From Syntrophorhabdus sp. (lineage in GTDB: Bacteria; Desulfobacterota; Syntrophorhabdia; Syntrophorhabdales; Syntrophorhabdaceae): a DNA stretch of 44,786 bases. The stretch's first letter is position 1, and each line of letters starts with the position of its first letter. The position numbers and the translations under genes are program-made. Below are positions 10,427 through 29,452 of the stretch, one piece after another. The DNA lies in contig JAAYAK010000313.1 of NCBI GenBank assembly GCA_012719415.1, positions 1 to 44,786 of the forward strand, written 5' to 3'. Under the pieces are notes generated by a model. That model was not told where the DNA came from. It worked only from the letters and a program-made list of their open reading frames with translations, and ran no database searches.

Positions 10427-10515
10427 GTTCAAGGGTTCAAAAGTTCAAGAGTTCAAGAGCAGGAGACAAAAGAACAACCTTTCCCTTGAACTCTTGAACT
10501 TTTGAACCCTTGAAC
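10427..10515. repeat. Perfect 31-bp inverted repeat built of TTCAAG units
   Basis: The arms 10427-10457 and 10485-10515 are exact reverse complements of 31 bp, separated by 27 bp. Each arm is a run of degenerate GTTCAAG units at 7-9 bp spacing. Similar TTCAAG/CTTGAA runs recur in other intergenic gaps of the window (16807-16838, 20011-20050, 31927-31962, 32060-32128, 33523-33560). It sits between the divergent T6SS and sigma54 promoters. Function unknown. Confidence 0.85.
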
Positions 10516-10545: not shown

Positions 10546-10560
10546 TGGCACCTTTTTTGC
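10546..10560 (+). promoter_or_regulatory. Sigma54 (-24/-12) promoter of the kinase/activator operon
   Basis: The sequence TGGCAC-CTTTT-TTGC has both conserved blocks (GG and GC) with the exact 5-bp spacer of the RpoN consensus TGGCAC-N5-TTGC. Transcription would begin near 10571, only a few bases before the ATG at 10575. No clear TGT-N11-ACA palindrome was found upstream, unlike the three promoters further downstream. A sigma54 promoter ahead of a sigma54 activator suggests autoregulation. Confidence 0.75.
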
Positions 10561-10574
10561 TATCCTATGTCGTC

Positions 10575-12074
10575 ATGGCCGAGATGAATTCCCGGAAGAG
10601 TTCCTCAACCCTCCAGTCGATCATGCGCCTTTTGTGCGGGGGGTCCTTCCTCATCAGCCCCGACCTCAGGATCGAATGGGTAGGGTCCGTGAGCCGCCGG
10701 TGGTCGGGAGGCAAGGGTGCCGGGGAGCTTGAGGGAAAGCACTGCTATTCCGTGATCATGGGGAGGCGCAAGCCCTGTGAAGGCTGTCCTGTCATGCGGT
10801 GCTACGAGAGCGGCAGGATGGAAGAGCTGGAGATGAAGATCGGTAAGGGCGGCAGCGCCGAGTACTTTGTCCTCACCGCGTCCCCTCTCGAGGGCAATGA
10901 GGGAGACGGCCTCATGGGGGTCGTCGAGATCATACGGGACGTCACGGCCTTCCGCAGGACCGAGGAAGACCTTCGCCAACTCGGGGAGTTCAATTATGAG
11001 ATCGTGGAGAACGCCCCGGTGGCGATCTTTACCATTAATAGAAAGGGGGAGTTCTCCAGCGTCAACCCGGCTCTCGCCACCCTGTCGGGATTCGAGAACA
11101 TGGCGAAGGCGAAGGAGAAGCTCCTCGGGTTCAACTGGATAAAGAACCCCTACACGAAGAAATGCGGCATGTCTAACCATATAAAAGAGGGTCTCAAGGG
11201 CAAGCCCTTTCAGCTCTGGGATTTCCCCTTTATCGATTACTGGGGGGTGCCGCAGTACATCTACTTCAAGGGTGTTCCCATCAAGGACAAGGATGGCCGT
11301 GTGGAAGGCCTCCTGTGCATCATCGAGGAGACGACGGAGCGCGTCAGGGCGCGGGACCAGTTGATGCAGGAAGCCAAGATGTCCATGATAGGGAGGCTTA
11401 CGACGGGCATCGCCCACGAGCTCAACAATCCCCTCGCCACCATAACGGCCAACGCGGAGCTTGCTCTGGAATCCCTTGAGAACCTCGAGGGGGGAAAGTT
11501 CAGCAGGAGGGACCTGGAGGAGTTCAAGGAAAGTCTGAGGGTGATCGAGGAGCAGGCGTTCAGGTGCACCAAGACGATCAAGAGCCTCCTCGACGTGACG
11601 AGGAAAAAGGACCTGGGGAAGACGAGCATCGACCTCACCGGGCTCCTCGATGAGATCCTGGACCACATCAATTTCCAGAGGCTCCCGGTGAGGTTCGTTC
11701 AGGATGTGCCCTCGCCCCTGCCGGCGGTAAAGGGCGATTTCGACGCGGTGCGGCAGGTCTTTCTCAACGTCATTGTCAATGCCGTCGATGCCGTCGAGGG
11801 GCAGAAGAACGCGGCCATATGGATAAAGGCCCGGCAGGTGTCCGGCAACACTCTCGAGGTTGCGATAGAGGACAACGGTCCGGGGATCCCCGAGAAGATG
11901 CGCGAGCTCATCTTCGAGCCCTTCTTCACGACGAAGGGGATAAAGAAGGGCACGGGTCTGGGGCTCACGCTGTGCTATGATTTTCTGCAGAGGATGGGGG
12001 GCGGCATCGAGGTGGGGCAGCGCCTCGATGGAGGGAGCGTCTTCAGGATCTCCCTTCCCCTCTACGCCAGGTAA
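10575..12074 (+). CDS. PAS-domain sensor histidine kinase (NtrB-like), cytosolic
   Basis: The product is the probable partner kinase of the adjacent NtrC-type activator. It has no membrane segments. There are two PAS regions (about 10-110 and 125-245); the first carries a GKHCYSVIMGRRKPCEGCP cysteine cluster seen in many PAS sensors of anaerobes. Next comes a HisKA domain with the phospho-acceptor His281 in GIAHELNNPLATI, and an HATPase domain with N box NAVDA, G1 box DNGPGIPE and G2 box GTGLGL. I place the start at ATG 10575 (MAEMNSRKSS), since a TTG further upstream would lie inside the -12 promoter element. No good ribosome site is visible, so ATG 10584 is an alternative. The signal is unknown; context suggests a carboxylic acid or redox cue. 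Confidence 0.88.
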   Translation: MAEMNSRKSSSTLQSIMRLLCGGSFLISPDLRIEWVGSVSRRWSGGKGAGELEGKHCYSVIMGRRKPCEGCPVMRCYESGRMEELEMKIGKGGSAEYFVLTASPLEGNEGDGLMGVVEIIRDVTAFRRTEEDLRQLGEFNYEIVENAPVAIFTINRKGEFSSVNPALATLSGFENMAKAKEKLLGFNWIKNPYTKKCGMSNHIKEGLKGKPFQLWDFPFIDYWGVPQYIYFKGVPIKDKDGRVEGLLCIIEETTERVRARDQLMQEAKMSMIGRLTTGIAHELNNPLATITANAELALESLENLEGGKFSRRDLEEFKESLRVIEEQAFRCTKTIKSLLDVTRKKDLGKTSIDLTGLLDEILDHINFQRLPVRFVQDVPSPLPAVKGDFDAVRQVFLNVIVNAVDAVEGQKNAAIWIKARQVSGNTLEVAIEDNGPGIPEKMRELIFEPFFTTKGIKKGTGLGLTLCYDFLQRMGGGIEVGQRLDGGSVFRISLPLYAR

Positions 12075-12095: not shown

Positions 12096-13445
12096 GTGAT
12101 CCGGATATTGATCGTCGACGACGAGGAACAGCTTGTTGAGGCCTTCAAGAAGAAGCTCTCCCGAGAAGGTTTCTCGGTGTCCGTCGCGTCCACAGCGCGC
12201 GACGCCCTCGCCCTGATGAAGAAGCAGACCTTCGATGTCTGCGTCCTCGACATCAGGCTGCCCGACATGGATGGGGTGGAACTCCTCGAATCGGTCAAGA
12301 AGAACGAACCCAACCTCGAGATCATCATGCTCACGGGCCATGCCTCCGTCGACACGGCCATCCAGTCGATGAAGCTCGGTGCCTACGACTACCTCAGCAA
12401 GCCCTGCAAGCTGACGGAACTCTCCAACGTCATCCAGAAGGCCTACGAGAAAAAGGCCCTCCGGGAGAGGAACATCGTCCTCCAGGAGCAGCTCCAGAGG
12501 GTGGAGGCGCACGACTCCTTCATCGGCGGCTCGGAGCCCATGAACGAGGTGAAACGCCTCATCCGCCTTGTCGCGCCCTCGGAGGTCCCCGTCCTCGTGC
12601 TCGGGGAGACGGGTACGGGAAAGGAGCTGGTGGCACGGGCCATCCACAATCTGAGCCCCCGGCAGCCCAGCCAGTTCGTGGCCGTCAATTCGAGCACGCT
12701 CCAGGAGAGCATCCTGGAGAGCGAGCTTTTTGGATACAAGAAGGGCGCCTTCACGGGTGCCCAGGCAGACAAGATGGGCCTTCTCGAGCTCGCCGACAAG
12801 GGCACCTTTTTCATCGACGAGATAGGCGACATGGGCATGGCCATCCAGGCCAAGTTCTTAAGGACCCTCGAGACGGGTATCTTCCGCCGCCTTGGCGACA
12901 CGCGGGAGTCCAGGGTGGACGTGAGGTTCATATTCGCCACCAACAAGTCCCTCGAGGCGGAGGTGAAGGAAAAAAGGTTTCGCAAGGACCTCTTCTTCCG
13001 GCTCAACACCTTCATCATCACCCTGCCTCCCTTAAGGGAGCGCAAGGACGACATACCTCTTCTCGCCGACTACTTCCTGGGGAAGTTCGCCCGCGGCGGG
13101 GCGAAGAAGGCCCTCTCCCCCGAGGCCATGGAGCTCCTCAAGGACTACCGCTGGCCCGGCAACGTCCGCGAGCTGGCGAACGTCATGGAACGGGCGGTCC
13201 TCCTTAGTGCCTCCCGGGAAACCATCCTGCCCGAAGACCTTCCCCAGAGCATGATGGAAAGCCGTCTCGCGGACCGGGAAGCGCAGGGGTGGGAGCTCAC
13301 CTCCGCCGACGAGCTGAGCCTCCAGCACATCGAACAGGAACACATCGAACGCGTCCTGACCCTCGCAAAGGGCAACAAGAGCAAAGCCGCCCGTCTCCTG
13401 GGGATAAGCAGAAGGAAGCTGTACCTGAAAACACAGGAAAAGTAG
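12096..13445 (+). CDS. NtrC-family sigma54-dependent response regulator
   Basis: Enhancer-binding activator of RNA polymerase-sigma54. The 449-residue protein has a receiver domain with acidic residues D8-D9, phospho-acceptor Asp52 (VLDIRLPDMDG), T80 and K102. The AAA+ domain has Walker A GETGTGKE (170-177), the sigma54-contacting GAFTGA loop (217-222) and FFIDEIGDM, and a C-terminal Fis-type HTH (about 420-449, NKSKAARLLGISRRKLYLK) follows. The start is GTG at 12096 behind GAGGAGG. It follows the kinase gene by 21 bp as a two-component operon. Nearby sigma54 promoters and shared palindromes mark the TRAP, acyl-CoA and Etf-Hdr operons as likely targets. Confidence 0.94.
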   Translation: MIRILIVDDEEQLVEAFKKKLSREGFSVSVASTARDALALMKKQTFDVCVLDIRLPDMDGVELLESVKKNEPNLEIIMLTGHASVDTAIQSMKLGAYDYLSKPCKLTELSNVIQKAYEKKALRERNIVLQEQLQRVEAHDSFIGGSEPMNEVKRLIRLVAPSEVPVLVLGETGTGKELVARAIHNLSPRQPSQFVAVNSSTLQESILESELFGYKKGAFTGAQADKMGLLELADKGTFFIDEIGDMGMAIQAKFLRTLETGIFRRLGDTRESRVDVRFIFATNKSLEAEVKEKRFRKDLFFRLNTFIITLPPLRERKDDIPLLADYFLGKFARGGAKKALSPEAMELLKDYRWPGNVRELANVMERAVLLSASRETILPEDLPQSMMESRLADREAQGWELTSADELSLQHIEQEHIERVLTLAKGNKSKAARLLGISRRKLYLKTQEK

Positions 13446-13683: not shown

Positions 13684-13700
13684 TGTATCATTTATGCACA
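13684..13700. promoter_or_regulatory. Candidate enhancer (UAS) of the sigma54 activator, TRAP operon
   Basis: TGTATCATTTATGCACA fits the 17-bp pattern TGT-N11-ACA with half-sites TGTATC and TGCACA. Its centre is about 71 bp upstream of the -24 element. The same pattern occurs upstream of two other sigma54 promoters in this window (16961-16977 and 20191-20207). The binding protein is inferred to be the NtrC-type regulator at 12096-13445. Confidence 0.55.
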
Positions 13701-13761
13701 CCATTGCCGGGAAGGTGGGGTGTGGTATACTGATTTCAGGGTTTTACGGGGGTTTCGGGGG

Positions 13762-13776
13762 TGGCATCAAAATTGC
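13762..13776 (+). promoter_or_regulatory. Sigma54 (-24/-12) promoter of the TRAP transporter operon
   Basis: TGGCAT-CAAAA-TTGC followed by TTTT has exact RpoN spacing. Predicted transcription start is near 13788, giving a 30-nt leader with an AAGGGGG ribosome site before the dctP ATG at 13818. A GTG in this promoter is in frame with dctP but would start translation inside the promoter and ahead of the signal peptide, so it is not the start. Confidence 0.8.
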
Positions 13777-13817
13777 TTTTCAAAAGCATCAACAAATCCA
13801 AGATCAAGGGGGTTTTT

Positions 13818-14834
13818 ATGAAACGGTGTGTGAGTATCGTGTCCGTTGTCCTTATCCTTGCGGTGGCTTTCTGTTTTACGTCGGTGCCGGCGAGCGCCCA
13901 GGTGAAGCTTCGTTTCGCCACCTTCTTTCCCGTGAGCCATCCGAACGCGGCCATCACGGCGGAGTGGTGCAAGGAGGTGGAGAAGAGGACGAACGGGAAG
14001 GTGAAGGTGCAGCATTTCCCGGGCGCGACCCTGACGTCGCCCCAGTCCCAGTATGACAGCATCCTGACTGGCGTCGTGGACATCGCGAACTGTGTCCTCG
14101 GGTACACGATGGGGAAATTCCCCCTCTCCGAGATCCTGGACTACCCGCTGGGTTATCCGAGCGGCGCCGTCGCGACGAGACTCGGCAACGAGTTCTATAA
14201 ACAGTTCAAGCCGAAAGAATTCGATGACGTGAAGGTCATGTACTTCCACGCCCAGGGCCCGGGCATACTCCACACGAGAAAACCCGTGAAGAACCTCGAT
14301 GACCTGAAGGGTATGAAGATACGGACCTTCGGCTCCAACGCGAAGATGATGTCCATGCTCGGCGGTTCGCCGGTTGCCATGCCCATGGGCGACGCCTATG
14401 ACGCCCTGTCCAAGGGTGTCGCCGACGGCCTCCTGTGCGGCTACGAGGCCCTGAAGGGCTGGAAGCTCGGCGAGGTCGTCAAGTCGACGACGGAGAACTA
14501 CGGCACCGCTTACACCGCGACCTTCGTCATCGCCATGAACAAGGCGAAATGGAACAGCATTCCCCCCGACGCCCAGAAGGTGATCGAGGCGATCAACCAG
14601 GAGTTCATCGAGAAACAGGGCAAGCTCTGGGACAAGATGGATCAGGACGGAAAGGAATTCTCCACGAAGAGGGGAAACCAGGTGGTCAAGCTCTCCGCCG
14701 AAGAGAACCAGAAATGGGTCACCAAGATCGAGCCGCTCTTCGCCGAGTATGTCAAGAAGATGAAAGAGAAGAACCTTCCCGGTGACAAGGCGCTCAAGTT
14801 CGTCCGCGAGTACATAAAGAAGAACACGAAATAG
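13818..14834 (+). CDS. dctP: TRAP transporter solute-binding protein (DctP family)
   Basis: Periplasmic binding protein that captures an organic acid and delivers it to the DctQM membrane proteins. The 338-residue product has a signal peptide (MKRCVSIVSVVLILAVAFCF...) with a likely cleavage after ASA (before QVKLRFATFFP). The mature part has the DctP fold signatures, including RTNGKVKVQHFPGATL, the DLKGMKIRTFGSN strand with the conserved arginine that pairs with a substrate carboxylate, and a Lys-rich C-terminal helix. A strong hairpin follows the gene. The substrate is not readable from sequence; the acyl-CoA ligase next door suggests an aromatic or fatty acid. Confidence 0.92.
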   Translation: MKRCVSIVSVVLILAVAFCFTSVPASAQVKLRFATFFPVSHPNAAITAEWCKEVEKRTNGKVKVQHFPGATLTSPQSQYDSILTGVVDIANCVLGYTMGKFPLSEILDYPLGYPSGAVATRLGNEFYKQFKPKEFDDVKVMYFHAQGPGILHTRKPVKNLDDLKGMKIRTFGSNAKMMSMLGGSPVAMPMGDAYDALSKGVADGLLCGYEALKGWKLGEVVKSTTENYGTAYTATFVIAMNKAKWNSIPPDAQKVIEAINQEFIEKQGKLWDKMDQDGKEFSTKRGNQVVKLSAEENQKWVTKIEPLFAEYVKKMKEKNLPGDKALKFVREYIKKNTK

Positions 14835-14848
14835 CCCCCATAAGGCCA

Positions 14849-14881
14849 GGCTGCCGGGGAGAATAAACGGCCCCGGCAGCC
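14849..14881 (+). other. Intercistronic hairpin between dctP and dctQ
   Basis: An 11-bp perfect stem (14849-14859 with 14871-14881, GGCTGCCGGGG/CCCCGGCAGCC) with an 11-nt loop lies between the dctP stop and the dctQ ribosome site. No T-run follows. Such stems often protect the 3' end of the binding-protein mRNA or partly stop transcription, so that the binding protein is made in excess over the membrane subunits. Confidence 0.65.
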
Positions 14882-14903
14882 GGCTCCCTAAGGAGGATGA
14901 TCG

Positions 14904-15392
14904 ATGAACAGCGTCGTCGGTGCCGTCAGGAGGTTTAGCGGCTGGATGAACGGGTTGAGCGGCATCGTTCTGTTCCTGATGATGATGCTCACGGTGGTGG
15001 ATGTTGCCCTTCGGATCTTCTGGAAACCCATCACGGGGACCTATGAGCTCGTTGCGATGGCAGGGGCCGTCGTCGTGGCCTTTGCCATACCGCAGACCTC
15101 CTGGGACAATGCCCATATATTCGTGGACTTTTTACTTGAGAAACGTTCCCGGGGGGTAAAGACGGCCTTCGGCTGCTTCACGAAGGTCCTCGGGGTGATA
15201 CTTTTCGTGATGTTGGGCTGGTACCTCCTCACAAAGGCGAACCACCTTTTCCGAGCCGGGGATGTCTCCCTCACCTTGGGAATACCCTACTATCCCGTAG
15301 CCTATGGGCTGGCGTTCTGTGCCTTCATGGAGGTCCTCGTCCTCGTCCTGCACATCGTAATGCTGTTCAAGGGTGGTGAGAACAATGGATGA
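14904..15392 (+). CDS. dctQ: TRAP transporter small membrane subunit (DctQ family)
   Basis: The 162-residue integral membrane protein has four predicted membrane helices (about 15-37, 45-65, 88-110, 128-150), the standard DctQ layout. FWKPITGTYELVAMAGAVVVAFAIPQ is typical of the family. Translation starts at ATG 14904 after an AGGAGGATG ribosome site. Its 3' end overlaps dctM by 8 bp, so both are probably translated in a coupled way. Confidence 0.92.
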   Translation: MNSVVGAVRRFSGWMNGLSGIVLFLMMMLTVVDVALRIFWKPITGTYELVAMAGAVVVAFAIPQTSWDNAHIFVDFLLEKRSRGVKTAFGCFTKVLGVILFVMLGWYLLTKANHLFRAGDVSLTLGIPYYPVAYGLAFCAFMEVLVLVLHIVMLFKGGENNG

Positions 15393-16686
15393 AATAACCA
15401 TAGGGGTCATCGGTATCTTTGTCCTGCTGGCACTCTTCCTGACCGGCTTGGAGCTGGCCTTCGGCATGGCGCTCATCGGTGTGGCGGGGTACGCTTACAT
15501 CGTCGGGCCCGCACAGGCAATGAACATGCTGGCCAACGATTTCTACGACTCTCTCGAGTCATACAGTCTCACGGTGGTGCCGCTCTTTGTCCTCATGGGG
15601 CAGATCGCCTTCAACGCCGGGGTGGCAAAGCGTCTCTACGATTGTTGCCACAAGTTCCTGGGGCACATCCCCGGAGGCCTGGCGATGGCCACCGTTGCCG
15701 GAGCGACGATCTTCAAGGCCATATGCGGCTCCATCGTGGCGACGAGTGCCACCTTCGCGAGCGTCGCCGTGCCCGAGATGGACAGGTTCAACTACAGCAA
15801 GAAGCTCTCCACGGGTATCGTGGCCACCGTCGGGACCCTTGGTGTTCTTATCCCCCCCAGCGTGACGCTCATCCTCCTCGGCCTCATTACGCAGGTCTCC
15901 ATAGGTAAGCTCTTCATGGCGGGATTGATCCCGGGCCTCATGATCTCCTTCTTCTTTGCCGTCGTCATCTTCGGGTGGGCCCGCATCAACCCGGAGATAG
16001 GACCAAAGAGCGAGAAATACTCCTGGCCGGCCCGTGTGAAGACCCTTCCCGATGTCATGTGGCCGGTGCTGATCTTCCTCGTCATCATCGGCGGGTTGAT
16101 GAACGGTTTCTTCACGCCCACCGAGGCAGGCTCGATCGGCACCTTCGCTGTCCTCGTGCTGTGCGTCCTGAAGGGTGACATCAAGTTCCAGGGTATCCGG
16201 CAGTCGATCAAGGAGGCCCTCCGGACCTCCTGTATGGTCCTTGTCATCGTGGCGGCCTCGACGGTGCTGGGCCACTTCATCGCCGTCACGAACATCCCCA
16301 ACGGTGTGGCGGAATGGGTGGTGAGCCTACCGGTCCATCGCCACATCATCATGATCTTCATCTTCCTGATCTACCTCATCGGTGGTTCCTTCATCGACGA
16401 CCTCGCGTTCCTCATCCTCGCGACACCGATATTCTACCCTGCGATCACGAACATGGGATATGACCCGATCTGGGCGTGCATCATGCTCTCCCTTACCGTC
16501 TGCGTGGGTTCCGTCATCCCGCCGGTCGCCATGTGCGTCTTCGTGGTGAAGAACATAACCAAGGTCCCCATGGGTGTCATCTACAAGGGCGTGTACCCCT
16601 TCCTTCTCGCGCTTTTCCTCTGCGTGGCGCTCCTTTTTGTCTTCCCCGAACTGACGCTGTATCTGCCGTCGGTTCTCATGAAATAG
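15385..16686 (+). CDS. dctM: TRAP transporter large membrane subunit (DctM family)
   Basis: DctM is the sodium-coupled transport channel. From ATG 15385 the product has 433 residues and about 12 membrane helices. Family motifs include the N-terminal GLELAFGMALIGVAGY, the IFKAICGSIVATSATFASVAVPEM segment, IPPSVTLILLG, and TPTEAGSIGTFAVLV (the conserved T-E-A-(A/G) loop). GTG 15373 is an in-frame alternative adding four residues. A hairpin follows the stop at 16715, closing the operon. Confidence 0.94.
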   Translation: MDEITIGVIGIFVLLALFLTGLELAFGMALIGVAGYAYIVGPAQAMNMLANDFYDSLESYSLTVVPLFVLMGQIAFNAGVAKRLYDCCHKFLGHIPGGLAMATVAGATIFKAICGSIVATSATFASVAVPEMDRFNYSKKLSTGIVATVGTLGVLIPPSVTLILLGLITQVSIGKLFMAGLIPGLMISFFFAVVIFGWARINPEIGPKSEKYSWPARVKTLPDVMWPVLIFLVIIGGLMNGFFTPTEAGSIGTFAVLVLCVLKGDIKFQGIRQSIKEALRTSCMVLVIVAASTVLGHFIAVTNIPNGVAEWVVSLPVHRHIIMIFIFLIYLIGGSFIDDLAFLILATPIFYPAITNMGYDPIWACIMLSLTVCVGSVIPPVAMCVFVVKNITKVPMGVIYKGVYPFLLALFLCVALLFVFPELTLYLPSVLMK

Positions 16687-16714
16687 GCCGTTCGTATACA
16701 CTCCTTCAATGCCC

Positions 16715-16743
16715 GGGCCGGATGGAGCGCTGCCATCCGGCCC
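16715..16743 (+). terminator. Hairpin at the end of the TRAP operon
   Basis: GGGCCGGATGG (16715-16725), a 7-nt loop and CCATCCGGCCC (16733-16743) form a perfect 11-bp GC-rich stem 28 bp after the dctM stop. The following bases (AAAGCTTG) lack a proper T-run, so it may need Rho or act as an mRNA 3' stabiliser. Confidence 0.6.
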
Positions 16744-16753
16744 AAAGCTTGTA

Positions 16754-17156
16754 AAGACGGTCTCAGGTTTCAGGTCTCAGGTTGCAGGTTAAAGACCTGA
16801 GAGGCGGTTCAAGAGTTCAAGGGGTCAAGAGTTCAAGGGAAGAACCATCGGAGTGAGAGGGCGGGCAGAGTAGGTTCGGCAATTGTGTTGACAATTGAGG
16901 GGGGTCGGCGCTTTGCCGGACCTCCTGCCCTGTCAGACCTCTGTAATGAAATTGAACAGGTGTGCAGAAAATGCACAGGCGGGAGACAGACAGGGTTACC
17001 GGGGTCCCGTGCGTGCCCGTCCCGCCGTTCTTTATCGTTTCCATCACATCCACGTAACAGCCCGAAATCAATCGTATAGCGAGAGCCCGCCCCCACCAGT
17101 CGGTTCTCTTGTCTTCAACCTGAGACCTGCAACCTGCGACCTGCAACCGTCTTTTC
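16754..17156. repeat. Intergenic region bounded by inverted heptamer arrays
   Basis: At 16754-16800 a run of CAGGTCT/CAGGTTT/CAGGTTG units repeats every 7 bp, starting with AAAGACGG. At 17115-17156 the reverse complement of a similar array ends with CCGTCTTTT, so the arrays face each other. Inside lie a TTCAAG array (16807-16838), a CAATTG-N6-CAATTG palindrome near 16880-16897 and the enhancer-like palindrome at 16961-16977. I see no gene in this gap of about 540 bp. Confidence 0.7.
16961..16977. promoter_or_regulatory. Candidate enhancer (UAS) upstream of the acyl-CoA ligase operon
   Basis: TGTGCAGAAAATGCACA is a perfect palindrome of two TGTGCA half-sites around five bases, matching the TGT-N11-ACA pattern at 13684-13700 and 20191-20207. 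Its centre is about 190 bp upstream of the -24 element at 17159, a usual distance for NtrC-type enhancers. Confidence 0.6.
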
Positions 17157-17158
17157 AG

Positions 17159-17173
17159 TGGCATGCTAATTGC
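17159..17173 (+). promoter_or_regulatory. Sigma54 (-24/-12) promoter of the acyl-CoA ligase/dehydrogenase operon
   Basis: TGGCAT-GCTAA-TTGC has the exact RpoN spacing and differs from the TRAP promoter only in the spacer. Transcription would start near 17185, leaving about 43 nt of leader before ATG 17228. Confidence 0.8.
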
Positions 17174-17227
17174 TCATGATGATGTGCGAATCTCACTCTA
17201 TTACTGCACTTCAGGAGGCGACTGGAA

Positions 17228-18808
<1,581 letters not shown>

Positions 18809-18864
18809 AGGGACAGACGGGTCAGCGGCACAGATGCCGGGAATAACCTTTTGGAGGAAGACAG

Positions 18865-20010
18865 ATGGAACTGACAACGGAACAGAAGGACATATGCAAG
18901 GCGGCACGTGAATTCGCCGAGAAGGAGTTCAGGGACAAGGCGAAGGATTTCGATGAGAAAGAGGAGTTCGACCTCTCCATCGTGAAGCGCGCAGCCGAGA
19001 ACGGCTTCATCGGGGTCTTCATCAAGGAAGAGTACGGGGGAGCGGGCCTCGGGTTCCTCGAGCATTCGCTCATCACCGAGGAGGTGTGGCGTGTCGATCC
19101 CGGCTGCGGCCAGAACATCTGCTCCGCCGGTTTCGGCGCCGAGATGATCCAGACCTTCGGAACGGAGGACCAGAAGCGGTTCTACCTCCCGAAGATCGCG
19201 TCCGGCGAGGCCATCATCGGCACGGCGATAACGGAGCCCGACGCGGGCAGTGACGTGACGATGGTGAAGACCCGCGCCGAGAAGAAGGGCGACACATATG
19301 TCATCAACGGCGCGAAGATGTTCATAACGAACGGGTGCAACGCGAAGTACCTCCTCGTTTACGCCGTCACCGACCCCGAGGCGAAGGACGTGCACAAGAG
19401 ATGCAGCGTCATACTCCTCGACACGGCGACCCCGGGCTTCACGGCGACGAAGATCTACGGCAAGATGGGCATCAGGGCCTCGAACACGGCGGAGGTGAGC
19501 TTCGACAACGTGGAGGTTCCCGCCGAGAACCTCATCGGCAAGGAGGGCCGGGGTTTCTACCAGCTCATGGAGTTCTTCAACATGACCCGCAACCACGTCG
19601 CCGCGCAGGGCGTGGGCGTCGCCCAGGGGGCCCTCGAGATGGCCATCTCCTACGTGAAGAAGAGAAAGGCCTTCGGCGGATATCTGTCGCGGCTCCAGGG
19701 CGTGCAGTTCAAGATAGCCGAGATGGCGACCCGCATCGAGGCCGCCCGCAGCCTCTATTGGAGGGCCGCGTACCTCCTCGACAACGGCAAGCTCGACCCC
19801 GCGCTCGTTTCCATGGCGAAGTGGTTCGCCGGCGAGACCGCTGTTTACGTGGCCAACGAGGCCCTGCAGCTCCACGGCGGCTACGGCTACATAATCGAGT
19901 ACGATATTCAGCGGTTCTACCGCGACGCGAAGATAGTCGAGATCTACGAAGGCTCCAAGGAGGTCGAAAAGGCGGTCATCGCCAGCGAACTGCTGAAACG
20001 TGTCTTCTAG
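18865..20010 (+). CDS. Acyl-CoA dehydrogenase
   Basis: FAD enzyme that introduces a double bond alpha-beta to a CoA thioester and passes electrons to ETF. The 381-residue product has the full three-domain fold: the N-terminal helices, the beta domain with GTAITEPDAGSDVTMVKTRAEK and the KMFITNG motif, and the C-terminal helices with QLHGGYGYIIEYDIQRFYRDAKI. The probable catalytic base is Glu362 in IYEGSKE, the usual place in medium-chain-type enzymes. The start follows GGAGG. The electron acceptor is probably the EtfAB encoded 1.5 kb downstream under a similar promoter. Confidence 0.94.
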   Translation: MELTTEQKDICKAAREFAEKEFRDKAKDFDEKEEFDLSIVKRAAENGFIGVFIKEEYGGAGLGFLEHSLITEEVWRVDPGCGQNICSAGFGAEMIQTFGTEDQKRFYLPKIASGEAIIGTAITEPDAGSDVTMVKTRAEKKGDTYVINGAKMFITNGCNAKYLLVYAVTDPEAKDVHKRCSVILLDTATPGFTATKIYGKMGIRASNTAEVSFDNVEVPAENLIGKEGRGFYQLMEFFNMTRNHVAAQGVGVAQGALEMAISYVKKRKAFGGYLSRLQGVQFKIAEMATRIEAARSLYWRAAYLLDNGKLDPALVSMAKWFAGETAVYVANEALQLHGGYGYIIEYDIQRFYRDAKIVEIYEGSKEVEKAVIASELLKRVF

Positions 20011-20190
20011 ACGCGGCTTGAACCACTTGAATGACGTGAGCGGTTTGAGGGGCATAGACGGAAAGATCTTTCCCCGGTTCCTGGGGATATCGTTTCCGGC
20101 CCTCAAGCCGCTCTCGCCGCATTGTTGTTCCGGCCATTCCTCTCGCTCCAACAGTTCCGACAATCAAAGCCGCTCACGCCACCATATGCC

Positions 20191-20207
20191 TGTATCAAAA
20201 GTATACA
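20191..20207. promoter_or_regulatory. Candidate enhancer (UAS) upstream of the Etf-Hdr operon
   Basis: TGTATCAAAAGTATACA fits TGT-N11-ACA with half-sites TGTATC and TATACA, like the sites at 13684-13700 and 16961-16977. Its centre lies about 104 bp upstream of the -24 element at 20302. Confidence 0.55.
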
Positions 20208-20301
20208 CCTGTTCCATAGCGAACACGCGGGGGGTGTTGCATCCTGTGCCGCGTTTGGGCTAACATACCATAATAATTGGCGAAGGGTTACCCGGCTTTT
20301 T

Positions 20302-20316
20302 TGGTATCCCCATTGC
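20302..20316 (+). promoter_or_regulatory. Sigma54 (-24/-12) promoter of the Etf-Hdr operon
   Basis: TGGTAT-CCCCA-TTGC keeps the invariant GG and GC with exact spacing. It deviates from consensus at the fourth base of the -24 block. Transcription would begin near 20328, about 62 nt before ATG 20390. The gap 20011-20389 otherwise holds CTTGAA-type repeat units (20011-20050) and no gene. Confidence 0.7.
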
Positions 20317-20389: not shown

Positions 20390-21484
20390 ATGGTTGAACA
20401 AGCCGCGACCAGGGTATTGACATGCATCCAGTGCGGGAAGTGCACGGGGAGTTGCCCCGAATCGGGCAGGACGCCCTTCAACGTGAGGATGCTCGTCAGG
20501 AAGAAGCAGTTCCAGTCCGCCATCGACGAGGCCCTTCCGTGGTACTGCACCTCCTGCGGCGCCTGTACCATACGGTGCCCGAGGGACGTGAAGCCTTCGG
20601 AGGTCATCATCGAGCTTCGCGCGAAGCTCGTGGAGGACGGCGACATCCCCGTCGCGCTCCAAAAGGCCCTGGAGAACACTTTCGTGCAGAAGAACCCCTG
20701 GGGACGTTCCCGCAACAAGCGCGCCGACTGGGCGCAGAAACTCGATTTCGAGGTTCCCCACGTGTCGGAGACCCAGAGTAAGAGGCTGCTCTTCGTCTGC
20801 TGCATACAGGCCTACGACCCGAGGTGCATGGTCATTCCCGTGAATGTCGCGCGGCTCTTCAACGCCGGTGGTTTGGAGTTCGGCATCCTCGGCGAGGAGG
20901 AGGCGTGCTGCGGCAACGAGATCCGGCGCATCGGGGAGGCGGGTCTTTTCGAGGAGCTCATGGAGGAGAACAAGGCGGCCTTCGAGGAGTACGGCGTCAA
21001 GGAGATCGTCGCCCTCTCGCCGCACTGCATGAACGTCCTGAAGAAAGAGTACGGGGACCTGGGCATCAAGGTCGTCCATTACACGGAGCTTCTCGCACCC
21101 CTCGTCGAAGAGGGTGCGATCAAGCTGCCGGGGTCTTTCGGGAAGAAGGTCATCTACCACGACCCCTGTTTTCTCGGGAAACAGAACGGTGTCTTCGATG
21201 AGCCGCGCTCGATCCTCGGCGCCGTCCCCGACCTCGAGCTTCTCGAGTTCTCCCGGTCGAGGGAAATGTCCCTGTGCTGCGAAGGCGGCGGCGGAAGGAT
21301 GTTCTTTGAGGTCGAGGCGACGTACCAGCGGAACGCCGAGGTCCGCGTCCTCGACGCCGTCAGCAGGGGTGCCGAGATCATCGCGACGGCATGCCCCTTC
21401 TGCGTCATGACCCTGGAAGACCCGGCCACAGAAAAAGGTCTCGCCGTGAAGGAGCTTTCAGAAATACTTACGGAGGTCTTATAA
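20390..21484 (+). CDS. HdrD-like iron-sulfur oxidoreductase (two 4Fe-4S, two CCG domains)
   Basis: Resembles HdrD/GlpC-type proteins that pass electrons between ETF or quinone and other carriers. The 364 residues contain two 4Fe-4S motifs at the N-terminus (C12-C22 and C53-C63), then two cysteine-rich CCG domains. The second is complete (DPCFLGKQN ... CCEGGGGRMFF ... CPFC). The first has CC at FVCCIQAYDPR, EACCGNE and then S-P-H-C where CxxC is expected, so it lacks one cysteine and may not hold the special HdrB-type cluster. It lies 1 bp ahead of etfB and is first in its operon, so an ETF:acceptor oxidoreductase role is likely. Heterodisulfide reduction itself is not implied. Confidence 0.85.
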   Translation: MVEQAATRVLTCIQCGKCTGSCPESGRTPFNVRMLVRKKQFQSAIDEALPWYCTSCGACTIRCPRDVKPSEVIIELRAKLVEDGDIPVALQKALENTFVQKNPWGRSRNKRADWAQKLDFEVPHVSETQSKRLLFVCCIQAYDPRCMVIPVNVARLFNAGGLEFGILGEEEACCGNEIRRIGEAGLFEELMEENKAAFEEYGVKEIVALSPHCMNVLKKEYGDLGIKVVHYTELLAPLVEEGAIKLPGSFGKKVIYHDPCFLGKQNGVFDEPRSILGAVPDLELLEFSRSREMSLCCEGGGGRMFFEVEATYQRNAEVRVLDAVSRGAEIIATACPFCVMTLEDPATEKGLAVKELSEILTEVL

Positions 21485-21485
21485 G

Positions 21486-22262
21486 ATGAATATCCTTGTA
21501 TTTACGAAGAGGGTTGCCGCAACCCAGGAAGAAGAGCTGCGCATCACCGGGGAAGGGCAGGCCGTCGATCTCTCGAAGGTGCCCTTCAAGGTCAATGACT
21601 GGGACAACTACAGCGTGGAAGAGGCGGTGCGCATCGTCGACAAGGCGGGCGGTTCGGTGACGGCCATTTCCATCGGTGACGCCGAATCCGACGAGGTTCT
21701 GCGGCGCGCCATCGCCATGGGGGCGAAGGACGGCTTTCTCGTGGAAACGGGGGATGTCCTCAACGACCCCTTCATGAGGGGCGAGCTCATCCGCAGCTTC
21801 ATCGACAAGGAGAAGGTCCCCTTTGATATCATCCTGACGGGTGTGCAGTCGGAAGACGACCAGTTCGGGGCCGTCGGAGGTATCGTTGCCGCCCTGATGG
21901 GTCTTCCCTACGCGTCCATGGTGATCGGCATCGACGCCGTCGAGGCTGACCATGTCATGATCCGCAGGGAGCTCGAGGGAGGCCTCCAGGAGAAGGTGAA
22001 GGTGGCAACCCCCTGTGTCCTTTCGATACAGAGCGGCATCAATGAGCCCCGGTACGTTTCCATCATGGGTATCCGCAAGGCCTCGAAGGTGGAACGCAAG
22101 GTCTTCAAGGCAGATGGATATGAAAAGGGCTCCCCTAAGATCGAGCTCACGAAGTGGGTCTATCCCGAGAAAAAGGGCGGGGCGACGATGCTCGAGGGAG
22201 AGCTCGCCGATGTGTGCGGCCAGCTCCTCGGCATTCTCAAGGAGAAGGGGGTGTGCCAATGA
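21486..22262 (+). CDS. etfB: Electron transfer flavoprotein beta subunit
   Basis: ETF accepts electrons from the acyl-CoA dehydrogenase. The 258-residue beta subunit begins MNILVFTKRVAATQEEELRI and contains the NDWDNYSVEEAVRI segment, ILTGVQSEDDQFGAVGGIVAALMGLPY (AMP/FAD-binding loop region) and LEGGLQEKVKVATPCVLSIQSGINEPRY, the ETF-beta recognition-loop region. Ribosome site GGAGGTC is 8 bp upstream. It overlaps etfA by 4 bp (ATGA). Whether this ETF bifurcates electrons (two FADs) or is the simple kind cannot be decided by reading. Confidence 0.95.
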   Translation: MNILVFTKRVAATQEEELRITGEGQAVDLSKVPFKVNDWDNYSVEEAVRIVDKAGGSVTAISIGDAESDEVLRRAIAMGAKDGFLVETGDVLNDPFMRGELIRSFIDKEKVPFDIILTGVQSEDDQFGAVGGIVAALMGLPYASMVIGIDAVEADHVMIRRELEGGLQEKVKVATPCVLSIQSGINEPRYVSIMGIRKASKVERKVFKADGYEKGSPKIELTKWVYPEKKGGATMLEGELADVCGQLLGILKEKGVCQ

Positions 22263-23191
22263 GTTACACGCTGATCGTTGCAGAGGTGAGGCGCGGCGTC
22301 TTCGAGGAGAGGAACCTCGACTCGCTGGGTCTTGGCGCCCTTCTCGGAGGGCAGTCGGTCCTTCTCGTCCCGGACGGGGCCTATGAGGTGGCGGACAAGC
22401 TCGTCGACGCCATCGTGAAGGTCACGGCAGCCGAAGAGGTGTACCTCAATCCCATGAACATGGGGAAGATACTGGAAGCCCTCTTTGCCGCGAAAGGCAA
22501 GCCGGACCACATCCTCTTCACCCAGTCCTCATCGGGGATGGAAGCTGCGGCATACGCCGCGGGCCTTTTCGGAATGCCCGTGATAACAGATGTGAGCGGT
22601 TATGACAGGGATGCCGGCATCTTCCTGAAGAGCTACTACTCCGATAAGGTCTTCGGGCAGTTCAAGGCCGCGGGCTCTCCCGCCATACTCACCGTGAGGA
22701 GCGGGAGCTTCCGGGAGTTCGCGGTGGAAAAGGCCGCCGCTCCCGCGGAGACCATCGAAGCCGTCCCCGCCGTCGAGACCCGTACATTCGTGGAATACGT
22801 CGAGGAAGAGAAGGCGGACATCGACATCACCAAGGCGGAGTTCCTCCTTTCCGTGGGAAGGGGTGTCGGGAACCAGGACGAGGTCTCCGGCTACGAGGAG
22901 CTTGCGGGCATCCTGAAGGCGGTCCTTTCCGGATCGCGCCCCGTCATCGACAAGATGTGGCTGCCCAAGGCGCGGCAGGTGGGAACGTCGGGCAAGACGG
23001 TGAAACCGAAGGTATACCTTGCCATGGGCATATCGGGCGCCTTCCAGCACATCGCGGGCATGAAGGACTCGGACTGCATCATCGCCGTCAACAAGGACCC
23101 GGAGGCCCCCATTTTCCAGTATGCCCATTACGGCATCGTCGGGGACATCCACAAGGTGCGTGACAAACTCAAAGAGCTGGCAAAGGGCTGA
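22259..23191 (+). CDS. etfA: Electron transfer flavoprotein alpha subunit
   Basis: The start is ATG 22259 within the ATGA overlap with etfB (MSYTLIVAEVRRGVFEERNLDSLGLG), giving 310 residues. The C-terminal FAD domain is clear: SRPVIDKMWLPKARQVGTSGKTVKPKVYLAMGISGAFQHIAGM and NKDPEAPIFQYAHYGIVGDIHKV are the ETF-alpha FAD signatures. No N-terminal ferredoxin domain is present. Translation of the next gene begins on the last base of the stop codon. Confidence 0.95.
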   Translation: MSYTLIVAEVRRGVFEERNLDSLGLGALLGGQSVLLVPDGAYEVADKLVDAIVKVTAAEEVYLNPMNMGKILEALFAAKGKPDHILFTQSSSGMEAAAYAAGLFGMPVITDVSGYDRDAGIFLKSYYSDKVFGQFKAAGSPAILTVRSGSFREFAVEKAAAPAETIEAVPAVETRTFVEYVEEEKADIDITKAEFLLSVGRGVGNQDEVSGYEELAGILKAVLSGSRPVIDKMWLPKARQVGTSGKTVKPKVYLAMGISGAFQHIAGMKDSDCIIAVNKDPEAPIFQYAHYGIVGDIHKVRDKLKELAKG

Positions 23192-25905
23192 TGGACGAAA
23201 AAGAAACAAAAGTTCTCGTTGTGGGTGGAGGGATAGGCGGCATCACCGCCGCCCTGGAGATCGCCTCCTGCGGCATCAATGTGACCATGGTGGAAGAGAG
23301 TCCCTCCATCGGGGGCAGGATGATACAGCTCGACAAGACCTTCCCCACCCTCGACTGTTCCACCTGTGTCCTTTCACCGAAGATGGTGGAGGTCGCGCTG
23401 AACCAGAAGATAGACCTCCTGTCGTGGGCGAAGGTGATGGCCGTGAAGAAGGAGGGCAGGGGGTTCACGGCCACCATCCTGAAAAGGTCCCGGTACGTGG
23501 ACCTGAAGAAATGCACCGCCTGCGGCGTCTGTTCCGGAGGCTGTCCGGTGGTGATGAAGAACGAGTTCAACGTGGGAACGGGACCGCGGAAGGCCGTCTA
23601 CATCCCCTTCCCCCAGGCCATTCCCAACAAGGCCCTCATAGACAAGCGGGAAGAGCGCCTGTGCAACATGGCCTGCATGGATGCCTGTCCCGTCAACACC
23701 AATGTGCCCGGCTACCTGAAGCACATCAGTGAGGGGAGGTTTGCCGACGCCTACAGGCTCATCAGGGCGACGAACCCCTTCCCGTCGGTCTGCGGCAGGG
23801 TCTGTTACGCCCCCTGCGAGAGGGTGTGCAACAGGGGCGAGATCGACGAGCCGCTGGCGATCCGGGACCTCAAGCGCTTCGCCGTCGATAACTTCGACAT
23901 CGCCTCCCTGGAGGTCCCCCAGGTGCAGAGGACGGGCAGGAAGGTGGCCGTGATCGGCGCCGGCCCGGCGGGGCTTGCCTGCGCCAACGACCTCGCCCTG
24001 GAAGGCCACGACGTGACCGTGTACGAGGCGCTCCCCGAGCCGGGCGGCATGCTCCGGTATGCCATTCCCGAATACAGGCTCCCGAAGGAGGAGTTGAAGG
24101 GCGAGATCGACTATATCCGCAGGCTCGGGGTGGAGATCCTCTGCGGCGTGGATGTTGGCGGAGAAAAGACCGCCGCCGTGATCCGGGACGCCTGTGATGC
24201 CCTCTTCGTGGCGACGGGTGCCCCGAAGGGTCTTCCCCTCGGTGTGGAAGGCGAAACGCTTGAAGGGATCGTCGACGGCATCAGGTTCCTGCGTGGTGTC
24301 AACAGGGGCGAGCACGTGTCCCCTGGCGACCGTGTCGCGGTCATCGGCGGCGGGAACACGGCCGTCGATTGCGCGCGGACGGCAAAGAGGCTGGGCAGCG
24401 CGTCCGTCACCGTCGTCTATCGCCGCACCCGGGAGGAGATGCCCGCGGCCGGCGAAGAGATAGACGCCCTGCTTCACGAAGGGATAGGCATCGAGTTCCT
24501 CGCCGCGCCGGTCCGTTTCCGGGGGGATGGCGGAAAGGTCGCGGAGATGGAGTGCGTTCGCATGGAGCTGGGCGAGCCCGATGAGAGCGGCCGCCGCCGG
24601 CCCGTGCCGAAGGCCGGTTCGGAGTTCACGATGCCCGTGGACTCGGTCATAACCGCCCTGGGCCAGGCCGTGGAGACCTCTTTCCTCGAATCCCTTGGCG
24701 TCGCCCTGGGCAGGGGGGGCACGGTGACGATAGACCCCGCGACGGGTGCCACCAACATCGAAGGGGTGTTCGCGGGCGGGGACGTGGTCACCGGGCCCGC
24801 GTACGTCATCGATGCCATAGCCGCCGGAAGGAAGGCGGCGTGGTCGATCGGCTCCTACCTCAGGGGCGAGGCCCCGGCGGGCGATGAGGAGCGCGGCACG
24901 CCACAGAGGCTTTCGGAAGAGCAGCGTGAGGTCCTCACCGGCAGGATCGAGCACCTGCCGCGGATAGCAATGCCCGAAGAGCCGGTGGGCGAGAGGGTTA
25001 CCGATTTTCGCGAGGTGGGGCTCGGCTACCCGAGCGCGGACGCCATGGCCGAGGCACGACGGTGCATCGCCGGCCAGGTCGAGGGATGCATAGGGTGCGG
25101 GGAATGCCTCCGTCGCTGCGAGGCAAAGGCAATAGACTACTCCATGCGGGACGAACTGGCGGAGATGTACTTCGACGGGATCGTCGTCGCCCCCGGTTTC
25201 GACCTCTATGACCCAACGGAGAAGACGGAGTTCGGCTACGGCAGGCTGAAAGGTGTCATAACGGGGATGGAGTTCGAGAGGCTCACCTCGGTGACGGGGC
25301 CGACGGGTGGGGACATCGTCATGAACGGGAAGACGCCGAAGCGCTTCTACTTCATCCAGTGCGTCGGCAGCCGCGACCGCCAGAGCGGTGCCCGATTCTG
25401 TTCCCGGGTCTGCTGCATGTACACGGCAAAGCACGCGTGCATCGTGAAGGACAGGATCAAGGATGCCACGATCTATATCTCCTACATCGACGTGAGGACC
25501 TACGGCAAGGGCTACGAAGAGTTCTACAAGAGCACCCAGGAGAACGGCGCCATGTACATCCGCGGCATCCCCGGAGAGGTGACGCAGGGCGAGAACGGCC
25601 TCCTGGTGCGTGTCGAGGACATGCTCTCCGGCGAGCTCCACGAGATAGAGGTGGATGTGGTCGTCCTCGCGACGGGGGTGAGGCCCCGGGCGGGTACCAG
25701 GGAGATGTGCGAGATGATGTCCCTCGAGAGGGACGAGTACGGTTTCATAAGCACCAGCGTGGTGGAGCCTTCGAGAACGAGCGTGGACGGCATTTTCGTC
25801 TGCGGCATGGCATCGGGGCCGAGAGACGTCCCCGACACGGTGGCCTCGGGAGGGGAAGCGGCGTCGCGGTGCATGGAATACGTGAAGGAGAGTGCCTCTT
25901 CATGA
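23191..25905 (+). CDS. HdrA-type flavoprotein with an inserted GltD-like NAD(P)H module
   Basis: Large 904-residue redox protein. The N-terminal HdrA part has a GGGIGG FAD motif (12-17), the LDCSTC cysteines (about 55) and a ferredoxin-like cluster (CTACGVCSGGCP, about 108-119). A glutamate-synthase-small-subunit (GltD/NfnB-like) domain is then inserted (about 150-570): the N-terminal iron-sulfur domain (CNMACMDACPVN ... CYAPCERVCNRG), an FAD motif GAGPAG near 256 and an NAD(P) motif GGGNTA near 387. After it come a 4Fe-4S motif (CIGCGECLRRCEAKAI, about 633) and the C-terminal HdrA half with QCVGSRDRQ and FCSRVCCM. The build suggests electron exchange between NAD(P)H and an Hdr complex. It is tightly coupled to etfA. 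Confidence 0.88.
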   Translation: MDEKETKVLVVGGGIGGITAALEIASCGINVTMVEESPSIGGRMIQLDKTFPTLDCSTCVLSPKMVEVALNQKIDLLSWAKVMAVKKEGRGFTATILKRSRYVDLKKCTACGVCSGGCPVVMKNEFNVGTGPRKAVYIPFPQAIPNKALIDKREERLCNMACMDACPVNTNVPGYLKHISEGRFADAYRLIRATNPFPSVCGRVCYAPCERVCNRGEIDEPLAIRDLKRFAVDNFDIASLEVPQVQRTGRKVAVIGAGPAGLACANDLALEGHDVTVYEALPEPGGMLRYAIPEYRLPKEELKGEIDYIRRLGVEILCGVDVGGEKTAAVIRDACDALFVATGAPKGLPLGVEGETLEGIVDGIRFLRGVNRGEHVSPGDRVAVIGGGNTAVDCARTAKRLGSASVTVVYRRTREEMPAAGEEIDALLHEGIGIEFLAAPVRFRGDGGKVAEMECVRMELGEPDESGRRRPVPKAGSEFTMPVDSVITALGQAVETSFLESLGVALGRGGTVTIDPATGATNIEGVFAGGDVVTGPAYVIDAIAAGRKAAWSIGSYLRGEAPAGDEERGTPQRLSEEQREVLTGRIEHLPRIAMPEEPVGERVTDFREVGLGYPSADAMAEARRCIAGQVEGCIGCGECLRRCEAKAIDYSMRDELAEMYFDGIVVAPGFDLYDPTEKTEFGYGRLKGVITGMEFERLTSVTGPTGGDIVMNGKTPKRFYFIQCVGSRDRQSGARFCSRVCCMYTAKHACIVKDRIKDATIYISYIDVRTYGKGYEEFYKSTQENGAMYIRGIPGEVTQGENGLLVRVEDMLSGELHEIEVDVVVLATGVRPRAGTREMCEMMSLERDEYGFISTSVVEPSRTSVDGIFVCGMASGPRDVPDTVASGGEAASRCMEYVKESASS

Positions 25906-27572: not shown

Positions 27573-27605
27573 CCTCGAACGACGTCAAGGGTAGAGGGGA
27601 AGTAC

Positions 27606-28013
27606 ATGGAAGATAGAACGGCAAAGAACCCGGAGATCGTGGGTTTTGCGTGTACCTACTGTACATTCAAGGCCTCGGAGATGGCGGGAAGCCTGAGGAT
27701 GAAGTACCCGGAAGGGGTGAAGGTGATCCAGGTTCCCTGTTCCAGCAGGGTCGACCCGGCCTTTGTGATAAAGGCCATCTTCGAGGGGGCCGACGGCGTT
27801 TTCGTCGCGGGCTGTCACCCGGGGGACTGTCACTTCATCAAGGGCAACTACTATACCCGCCGGAAGATAGCGGCCCTGAAGGAGCTTTTCGACGCCTTCG
27901 GCATGAAGGACAGGCTCCGGCTCTTCTGGGTGAGCGCCTCGGAGGCGCGGCGGTTCGTTGAAAAGGTGACGGAATTCTACAACGACATAAAGGAAAAGAA
28001 AAATGCAGGGTAA
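27606..28013 (+). CDS. mvhD: MvhD/FlpD-like iron-sulfur subunit
   Basis: MvhD-type proteins carry a 2Fe-2S cluster and link HdrA to a hydrogenase or formate dehydrogenase. The 135-residue product has the usual length and cysteine pattern: FACTYCTFKASEMAG, VPCSSRVDPAFVIKA and AGCHPGDCHFIKGNYY. A ribosome site (AGGGGAA) precedes ATG 27606. Its end overlaps the next gene by 11 bp. No hydrogenase large subunit is in the window, so the electron source or sink is the FrhB/FdhB-like subunit next to it or something encoded elsewhere. Confidence 0.92.
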   Translation: MEDRTAKNPEIVGFACTYCTFKASEMAGSLRMKYPEGVKVIQVPCSSRVDPAFVIKAIFEGADGVFVAGCHPGDCHFIKGNYYTRRKIAALKELFDAFGMKDRLRLFWVSASEARRFVEKVTEFYNDIKEKKNAG

Positions 28014-29007: not shown

Positions 29008-29452
29008 GCACGCCCTGGAACTCACCGATTACGGAAGGCAGGACTTCGCCGTGTGCCTGGGATGCAAGATCTGCGCCTCGGTGTGCACCGTGAACGACCT
29101 GTCTCCCGGCACGAACCCCCAGGAGATGCTCCAGAGGCTCTTCCTGGGACAGGACGTGGCCGCCGACGAGCCGCTGGTGCGCTTCTGCACGGGATGCTAC
29201 CGCTGCACCGGCGCCTGCCCCTGGGAGATACGCATACCCGAGGTGGTAAGGGCCCTGCGCCATGAGCTCGGGACGGAATCTCCCTTCGAAAAGGCCTTCA
29301 AGGGGTCGGTCTCTCTCTTCGGCAGGGTCTACGAGCCCTACGTGCTCATGAAGGCCGTGCCCTTTCTCCTGAAGGGAGGGTACATGAAGCACATGACGCG
29401 GTGGATGGAATACATGGGTTTCCACCTGCCCCACAAGGTAAAGGGGATGTAA
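28994..29452 (+). CDS. hdrC: HdrC-type ferredoxin subunit
   Basis: The 152-residue product has two 4Fe-4S motifs with HdrC spacing (CLGCKICASVC near 21 and CTGCYRCTGACPWEIRIPEVVRALR near 65), the second being the HdrC hallmark. HdrC relays electrons from HdrA to HdrB. The start overlaps the previous gene by 14 bp and the stop is 1 bp ahead of hdrB. Confidence 0.9.
   Translation: MPKTEHALELTDYGRQDFAVCLGCKICASVCTVNDLSPGTNPQEMLQRLFLGQDVAADEPLVRFCTGCYRCTGACPWEIRIPEVVRALRHELGTESPFEKAFKGSVSLFGRVYEPYVLMKAVPFLLKGGYMKHMTRWMEYMGFHLPHKVKGM

What the first reader, a model, noticed from the sequence alone, without database searches (positions are those of the whole stretch)
13684..20207. Shared 17-bp palindrome TGT-N11-ACA upstream of three sigma54 promoters
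TGTATCATTTATGCACA, TGTGCAGAAAATGCACA and TGTATCAAAAGTATACA (13684, 16961, 20191) have equal length, matching TGTRYM/TRYACA-like half-sites and AT-rich centres. They sit about 71, 190 and 104 bp upstream of their -24 elements. This is the pattern expected of enhancer sites for one NtrC-family activator, most likely the one at 12096-13445. The site is absent upstream of the regulator's own promoter and of the T6SS promoter.
Basis: partly seen in the sequence, partly recalled or inferred. Interest (0 to 1): 0.8.

Follow-up and report, generated by a model that had tools for sequence, protein, structure and literature searches.

The report
Shared enhancer sites of one σ54 activator
Three neighbouring operons for taking up and oxidising an organic acid carry the same pair of 17-letter DNA landing sites upstream of their promoters, and comparison with about 30 related genomes indicates that these are the control sites of the two-component regulator encoded next door; this is a new regulator and site pair of a well-known kind.

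Summary
The three 17-bp palindromes are at the given coordinates, each upstream of a −24/−12 element. A matrix trained only on other genera ranks these three promoters 1-3 of 34 scored σ54-type elements in the genome; none of the other 30 outside the window reaches the threshold. In related loci (Syntrophorhabdaceae), TGT-N11-ACA is about 20-fold enriched upstream of σ54 elements (88 seen, 4.3 expected), with none at spacers N8, N10, N12 and N14. Sites usually come as tandem pairs 19-21 bp apart; each window promoter has a second, weaker copy (13663, 16942, 20210). The sites follow orthologues of the NtrC-type response regulator at 12096-13445. Best reading: tandem enhancers for this regulator, which with the PAS kinase at 10557-12074 activates a TRAP transporter, an acyl-CoA ligase/dehydrogenase and an FeS/ETF/HdrA-type electron-transfer operon. 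Binding is inferred, not shown. TGT-N11-ACA bEBP motifs are already reported in Desulfovibrio, so this is a new member of a known kind. Extra: the ligase enhancer pair is inverted and about 108 bp further upstream than in sister species.

The parts
10427..10515 (.). Perfect 31-bp inverted repeat with 8-bp-period (TTGAACNN) arms, a dispersed repeat upstream of the regulator promoter; context only, not part of the enhancer system
10546..10560 (+). σ54 −24/−12 element of the kinase-regulator operon; no enhancer palindrome upstream
   Evidence: element present in same-genus relatives
10557..12074 (+). PAS-PAS histidine kinase, no clear transmembrane segment (real start probably a little downstream)
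   Evidence: Pfam PAS_4, HisKA, HATPase_c; hydropathy
12096..13445 (+). NtrC-type response regulator: receiver, AAA+ with GAFTGA, Fis-type HTH; proposed binder of the sites
   Evidence: single copy of this HTH type in the genome
13663..13679 (.). Secondary (weak) enhancer site TGGTCAAAAGATGCACA, 21 bp upstream of the main site
   Evidence: relative G008 has TGTTTAAAAGATATACA here
13684..13700 (.). Main enhancer site 1, TGTATCATTTATGCACA
13762..13776 (+). σ54 element of the TRAP transporter operon
13818..16686 (+). TRAP transporter dctP (likely ATG at 13818, to 14834), dctQ (14904-15392), dctM (15373-16686)
16942..16958 (.). Enhancer site 2a, TGTAATGAAATTGAACA, 19 bp upstream of 2b
16961..16977 (.). 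Enhancer site 2b, TGTGCAGAAAATGCACA; the 2a-2b pair is inverted relative to sister species
17159..17173 (+). σ54 element of the acyl-CoA ligase / acyl-CoA dehydrogenase operon
17228..20010 (+). AMP-dependent acyl-CoA ligase (17228-18808) and acyl-CoA dehydrogenase (18865-20010)
20191..20207 (.). Main enhancer site 3, TGTATCAAAAGTATACA
20210..20225 (.). Secondary enhancer site TGTTCCATAGCGAACA; TGT-N10-ACA because one base is missing relative to relatives, which keep N11
20302..20316 (+). σ54 element of the FeS-CCG/ETF/HdrA-type operon
20390..31930 (+). FeS/CCG protein (20390-21484), EtfB, EtfA, HdrA-like flavoproteins and FeS proteins to about 31930 (operon extent inferred)

Best explanation
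The palindromes are upstream activating sites (enhancers) for the NtrC-type response regulator at 12096-13445. Proposed steps: (1) the apparently soluble PAS-PAS kinase at 10557-12074 senses an intracellular signal and phosphorylates the regulator (inferred from domains and operon). (2) Regulator dimers bind tandem 17-bp TGT-N11-ACA sites about two helical turns apart (sites shown; binding inferred). (3) The AAA+ ring, through its GAFTGA loop, remodels σ54-RNA polymerase at the −24/−12 element 70-220 bp away (inferred from the family). (4) This switches on together a TRAP acid importer, an acyl-CoA ligase/dehydrogenase pair and an ETF/HdrA-type electron-transfer operon (inferred). The kinase-regulator operon has its own σ54 element but no such site in this genus, so another activator would have to drive it here.
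For: Top 3 of 34 σ54 elements of the genome by a matrix from other genera. TGT-N11-ACA 88 vs 4.3 expected upstream of σ54 elements in related loci; N8, N10, N12, N14 at background. Second site at 19-21 bp in 50 of 101 offsets vs 6.6 for a flat distribution. Sites invariant or nearly so while flanks diverge. Same target genes carry them across genera. At the FeS-CCG promoter, 20 of 20 regulator-bearing genomes in which that gene heads its operon have the site; four genomes without the regulator lack both site and σ54 element (hand-computed p = 0.001 with G003 and G019 counted as exceptions). Sites between divergent regulator (or kinase) and target promoters in sister genera. GAFTGA and receiver Asp present. 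Only one HTH of this type in the genome.
Against: No binding or expression data. G003 and G019 have the site without a found regulator (draft assemblies: in G003 the gene is at a contig start, in G019 a transposase-like gene lies upstream). The genome has at least eight other NtrC-type regulators at 40-45% identity. The 16961 site scores only 12.6, and the secondary sites at 13663 and 20210 are degraded. The promoters compared are related by descent, so the enrichments overstate the number of independent cases. The same-genus regulator promoter lacks the site.
Confidence: 0.87

Rival explanations
1. The sites are real σ54 enhancers but are bound mainly by another NtrC-type regulator of the genome (or by several with the same code), while the adjacent two-component system controls something else or shares them.
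For: Other NtrC-type proteins exist; in G003 and G019 the site is present without the orthologue; several relatives have two related regulators of this family with the same targets.
Against: Only one HTH of this type in the genome; loss of regulator goes with loss of site and σ54 element in four genomes; sites lie between divergent regulator and target promoters in sister genera.
Confidence: 0.08
2. The sites belong to a non-EBP factor (for example a CRP/FNR- or GntR-type protein) that modulates these promoters from upstream.
For: CRP-like and other dimeric regulators also use TGT...ACA palindromes (own knowledge); distances of 70-220 bp do not exclude a repressor or co-activator.
Against: Strict tie to σ54 elements and to the EBP gene, tandem 19-21 bp pairs, distances varying from about 70 to 220 bp and natural inversion of one pair all fit an enhancer; a 16-bp CRP- or NifA-like TGT-N10-ACA spacing is not enriched.
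Confidence: 0.04
3. Chance similarity of AT-rich intergenic palindromes.
For: Bare TGT-N11-ACA occurs 560 times in the genome.
Against: Enrichment, conservation and spacing are far beyond chance.
Confidence: 0.01

Closest known systems
TGT-N11-ACA bEBP motifs of Desulfovibrio vulgaris (Kazakov et al. 2015, PMC4641369)
   Same: σ54-dependent promoters with NtrC-type regulator sites made of TGT and ACA half-sites 11 bp apart, in many cases near the regulator gene; many targets are acid-use and transport genes
   Different: Different lineage of the former Deltaproteobacteria and different target genes (TRAP, acyl-CoA ligase/dehydrogenase, ETF/HdrA); whether the regulators are close relatives was not tested
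E. coli AtoS-AtoC and its atoDAEB enhancer (PMC3118216)
   Same: Kinase + NtrC-type regulator beside a σ54 operon for short-chain acid use; enhancer in the regulator-target intergenic region; two sites 21 bp apart; best-scoring named NCBIfam model; HTH shares LGISRR
   Different: 42% identity (185 of 437 aligned residues); NCBIfam score 422 below cutoff 714; AtoC site GCTATGCAGAAATTTGCACA is not TGT-N11-ACA and is not found by the present matrix; kinase scores 180 vs cutoff 646 for AtoS
NifA upstream activating sequence TGT-N10-ACA
   Same: TGT/ACA palindrome upstream of σ54 promoters (own knowledge)
   Different: Spacer is 11, not 10 (N10 at background); the regulator has a receiver domain and scores below the NifA cutoff

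Membership tests
NtrC-type two-component σ54 activator (bEBP) | Receiver + σ54-interacting AAA+ + Fis-type HTH domains | tested here: met
   Pfam PF00072, PF00158, PF02954
NtrC-type two-component σ54 activator (bEBP) | GAFTGA loop, catalytic motifs, receiver Asp | tested here: met
   GAFTGA at residue 217, FFIDE at 238, Asp 52 in VLDI; GETGTGKE Walker A read by eye in the printed sequence
NtrC-type two-component σ54 activator (bEBP) | −24/−12 promoters at the targets | tested here: met
NtrC-type two-component σ54 activator (bEBP) | Binds upstream palindromic sites and activates at a distance | not testable with these tools
   Sites conserved; binding and activation need the bench
AtoC (acetoacetate regulator) equivalog | Score above the curated cutoff | tested here: not met
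   422.5 bits vs cutoff 714
AtoC (acetoacetate regulator) equivalog | AtoC-type binding site | tested here: not met
   Matrix of the present motif does not find the AtoC site in the atoC-atoD region
NifA | Score above cutoff and TGT-N10-ACA site | tested here: not met
   313 vs 528.85 bits; N10 at background
TGT-N11-ACA motif group of Desulfovibrio bEBPs | TGT/ACA half-sites 11 bp apart at σ54 promoters | tested here: met
TGT-N11-ACA motif group of Desulfovibrio bEBPs | Regulator related to those Desulfovibrio regulators | not tested
   Their sequences were not compared; the paper notes motif and DNA-binding-domain similarity need not agree

The most novel reading that the evidence does not exclude
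In the Syntrophorhabdales one family of two-component σ54 regulators, often present as two paralogues per genome, shares a single operator code, so that kinases for different acids all converge on the common ETF/HdrA electron-transfer operon while substrate modules are swapped; and its enhancer pairs can be moved and inverted naturally by dispersed inverted-repeat elements without loss of conservation.
Probability: 0.35. Interest if true: 0.55.

Novelty: new member of a known kind. Interest (0 to 1): 0.42.

Why it matters
It gives a concrete, testable regulon for acid uptake and acyl-CoA oxidation in a poorly cultivated group (Syntrophorhabdales), for which I found no described σ54 regulon in the papers searched. 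It links substrate modules to a shared electron-transfer operon by one operator, which helps to predict which unknown genes belong to the same pathway. The inverted, displaced enhancer pair is a natural case of orientation- and distance-independent enhancer action in bacteria, if it is functional.

Tried and rejected
(a) Bare TGT-N11-ACA as a genome-wide search: too frequent (560 places). (b) A seed search with TGTATCAWTTATGCACA and up to 3 mismatches found only scattered weak matches elsewhere. (c) High-scoring sites inside the ETF genes (22014 TGTGTCCTTTCGATACA, 22252 TGTGCCAATGAGTTACA): no σ54 element follows 22014 within 300 bp; similar TGT...ACA strings occur within the coding sequence of relatives near 22252, so both are treated as coding coincidence. 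(d) NifA/CRP-like 16-bp spacing: not enriched. (e) Filing as AtoC: cutoff not met. (f) A search of G003, G018, G019, G015, G021, G023, G040 for the regulator at E 1e-115 found none; the DNA-binding domain alone then revealed a truncated orthologue at a contig edge in G018. (h) Substrate identity: ligase and dehydrogenase match only general fatty-/aryl-acyl families, so the acid is not named. (i) The excess at spacers N9 and N13 (21 and 24) was not followed up; probably the N11 sites read with a TGTGT/ACACA two-base shift.

Full report
WHAT IS THERE. A fourth element, 10546, precedes the kinase-regulator operon. The genes are a PAS-PAS kinase (10557-12074), an NtrC-type response regulator (12096-13445), a TRAP transporter dctPQM, an acyl-CoA ligase with an acyl-CoA dehydrogenase, and an FeS-CCG/EtfB/EtfA/HdrA-like electron-transfer series. 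The nearest relatives of the regulator that carry organism names come from Syntrophorhabdaceae and unclassified Deltaproteobacteria.

IS IT MORE THAN CHANCE. Bare TGT-N11-ACA is common: 560 in the genome. The extended half-site is rare: 15 places genome-wide for TGTRNM-N5-KNYACA and 14 for TGTDYM-N5-KRHACA, with 5 and 4 in this 1.2% of the genome, and no place outside the window has a σ54 element within 300 bp downstream. Inspection of the other σ54 elements of the genome shows no comparable palindrome pair. The cleanest test is a matrix built only from other genera: it puts the three window promoters first, second and third among the 34 σ54 elements scored, with nothing else at 12 or more (Fisher p = 7e-4). 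In 3000 Markov simulations of the three upstream regions, 2906 gave no promoter with such a site, 93 gave one, 1 gave two and none gave three. The 16961 site itself scores 12.6 and its partner at 16942 14.1, so promoter 2 is the weakest of the three.

PHYLOGENETIC FOOTPRINT. About thirty loci around regulator orthologues (58-97% identity) were fetched. The same palindrome recurs upstream of σ54 elements of dctP, the ligase, the dehydrogenase and the FeS-CCG operon. Across 81 upstream regions TGT-N11-ACA occurs 88 times against 4.3 expected, while N8, N10, N12 and N14 are at background; N9 and N13 are raised (21 and 24), probably from TGTGT/ACACA ends shifted by two. In alignments the 17-mer stays while the flanks diverge (dctP promoter; FeS-CCG promoter). 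The sites are related by descent, so the counts should be read as strong support rather than exact probabilities.

TANDEM ARCHITECTURE. Around the best site of each of 56 promoters, second sites sit 19-21 bp away in 50 of 101 offsets, against 6.6 if flat; a few promoters show 39 bp, about four turns. Window copies: 13663 TGGTCAAAAGATGCACA (21 bp upstream, one degraded TGT; G008 keeps TGTTTAAAAGATATACA), 16942 TGTAATGAAATTGAACA (19 bp upstream), and 20210 TGTTCCATAGCGAACA (19 bp downstream; relatives have one more base, so the window copy has become N10). Two dimers on one face of the helix, 70-220 bp from the −24 element, is the expected layout of an NtrC-type enhancer.

WHICH PROTEIN. The adjacent regulator has receiver, AAA+ and Fis-type HTH domains, GAFTGA and a receiver Asp. 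Its DNA-binding domain type is unique in this genome, though at least eight other NtrC-type proteins exist at 40-45% identity. At the FeS-CCG promoter, all 20 regulator-bearing genomes in which that gene heads its operon have the site. In G025, G037 and G041 that gene appears to lie inside a larger operon; in G025 and G037 sites were seen at another σ54-like element of the same cluster. Four genomes without the orthologue (G015, G021, G023, G040) lack both site and σ54 element; G003 and G019 have the site without a found orthologue, both drafts with a contig start or a transposase-like gene upstream. G018, first counted as lacking the regulator, has it truncated at a contig edge. Counting G003 and G019 as exceptions, the one-sided probability is 15/14950 = 0.001; counting the three internal cases as lacking the site, 0.018 (hand calculation; not corrected for phylogeny). 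In several sister genera the sites lie in the divergent promoter region of regulator (or kinase) and target operon (L177, L179, L180; in genus mates L176, L178, L185), consistent with autoregulation in the former; at the window's own kinase-regulator σ54 promoter they are missing.

NATURAL ENHANCER INVERSION. The ligase promoter pair (16942-16977) aligns with the pair in G008 and G011 only as its reverse complement (scores 46 and 44; best of 200 shuffles 26 and 25; forward 18 and 16), with the same two-base linker in G008, and lies at −217/−198 instead of −109/−90. In the window the pair lies between arms of a long imperfect inverted repeat (16750-16802 / 17105-17157). How the inversion arose is not shown. 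If functional, it illustrates orientation- and distance-independent action.

COMPARISON WITH WHAT IS KNOWN. D. vulgaris bEBP motifs include groups with TGT and ACA half-sites 9, 11 or 12 bp apart (PMC4641369), so the motif class is known; the paper adds that motif likeness need not mirror DNA-binding-domain likeness. AtoC of E. coli is the closest named family and works in a similar setting, with two sites 21 bp apart in the regulator-target intergenic region (PMC3118216), but the regulator fails the AtoC cutoff and the sites differ. NifA is excluded by spacer and score. Verdict: a new regulator-operator pair of a known kind, well supported by comparison, not tested by experiment.

Noticed in passing
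window 10427-10515; genome-wide: Dispersed hairpin elements with 8-bp-period arms (TTGAACNN)n: a perfect 31-bp inverted repeat here, 74 + 67 matches to three units in the genome with 0 in the reversed control, often as minus/plus pairs roughly 100 bp apart. Several σ54 elements elsewhere (L027, L031, L033, L037) are preceded by similar short-period repeat arms. Origin and role unknown.
   Followed up: partly
window 16750-17157: Imperfect 53-bp inverted repeat of CCTGNRA units encloses the ligase enhancer pair, which is inverted relative to sister species.
   Followed up: partly
window 10546-10584: The −12 element of the kinase operon is so close to the possible start codons that the transcript would have almost no leader; no enhancer site of this type is upstream, so the activator of this promoter is unknown.
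   Followed up: no
G008 C21, G007 C73, G009 C76, G020 C20, G029 C12: Several relatives carry two regulators of this family on the same contig around the acid-oxidation cluster; the window's genome has only one.
   Followed up: partly
window 33724-34656 and 35332-36120: AbiEii-type nucleotidyltransferase (type IV toxin-antitoxin) and an ADP-ribosylglycohydrolase beyond the end of the cluster.
   Followed up: no
window 3940-7458 (minus strand): IcmF-related T6SS protein within a minus-strand gene series; no σ54-like element found upstream on that strand.
   Followed up: no
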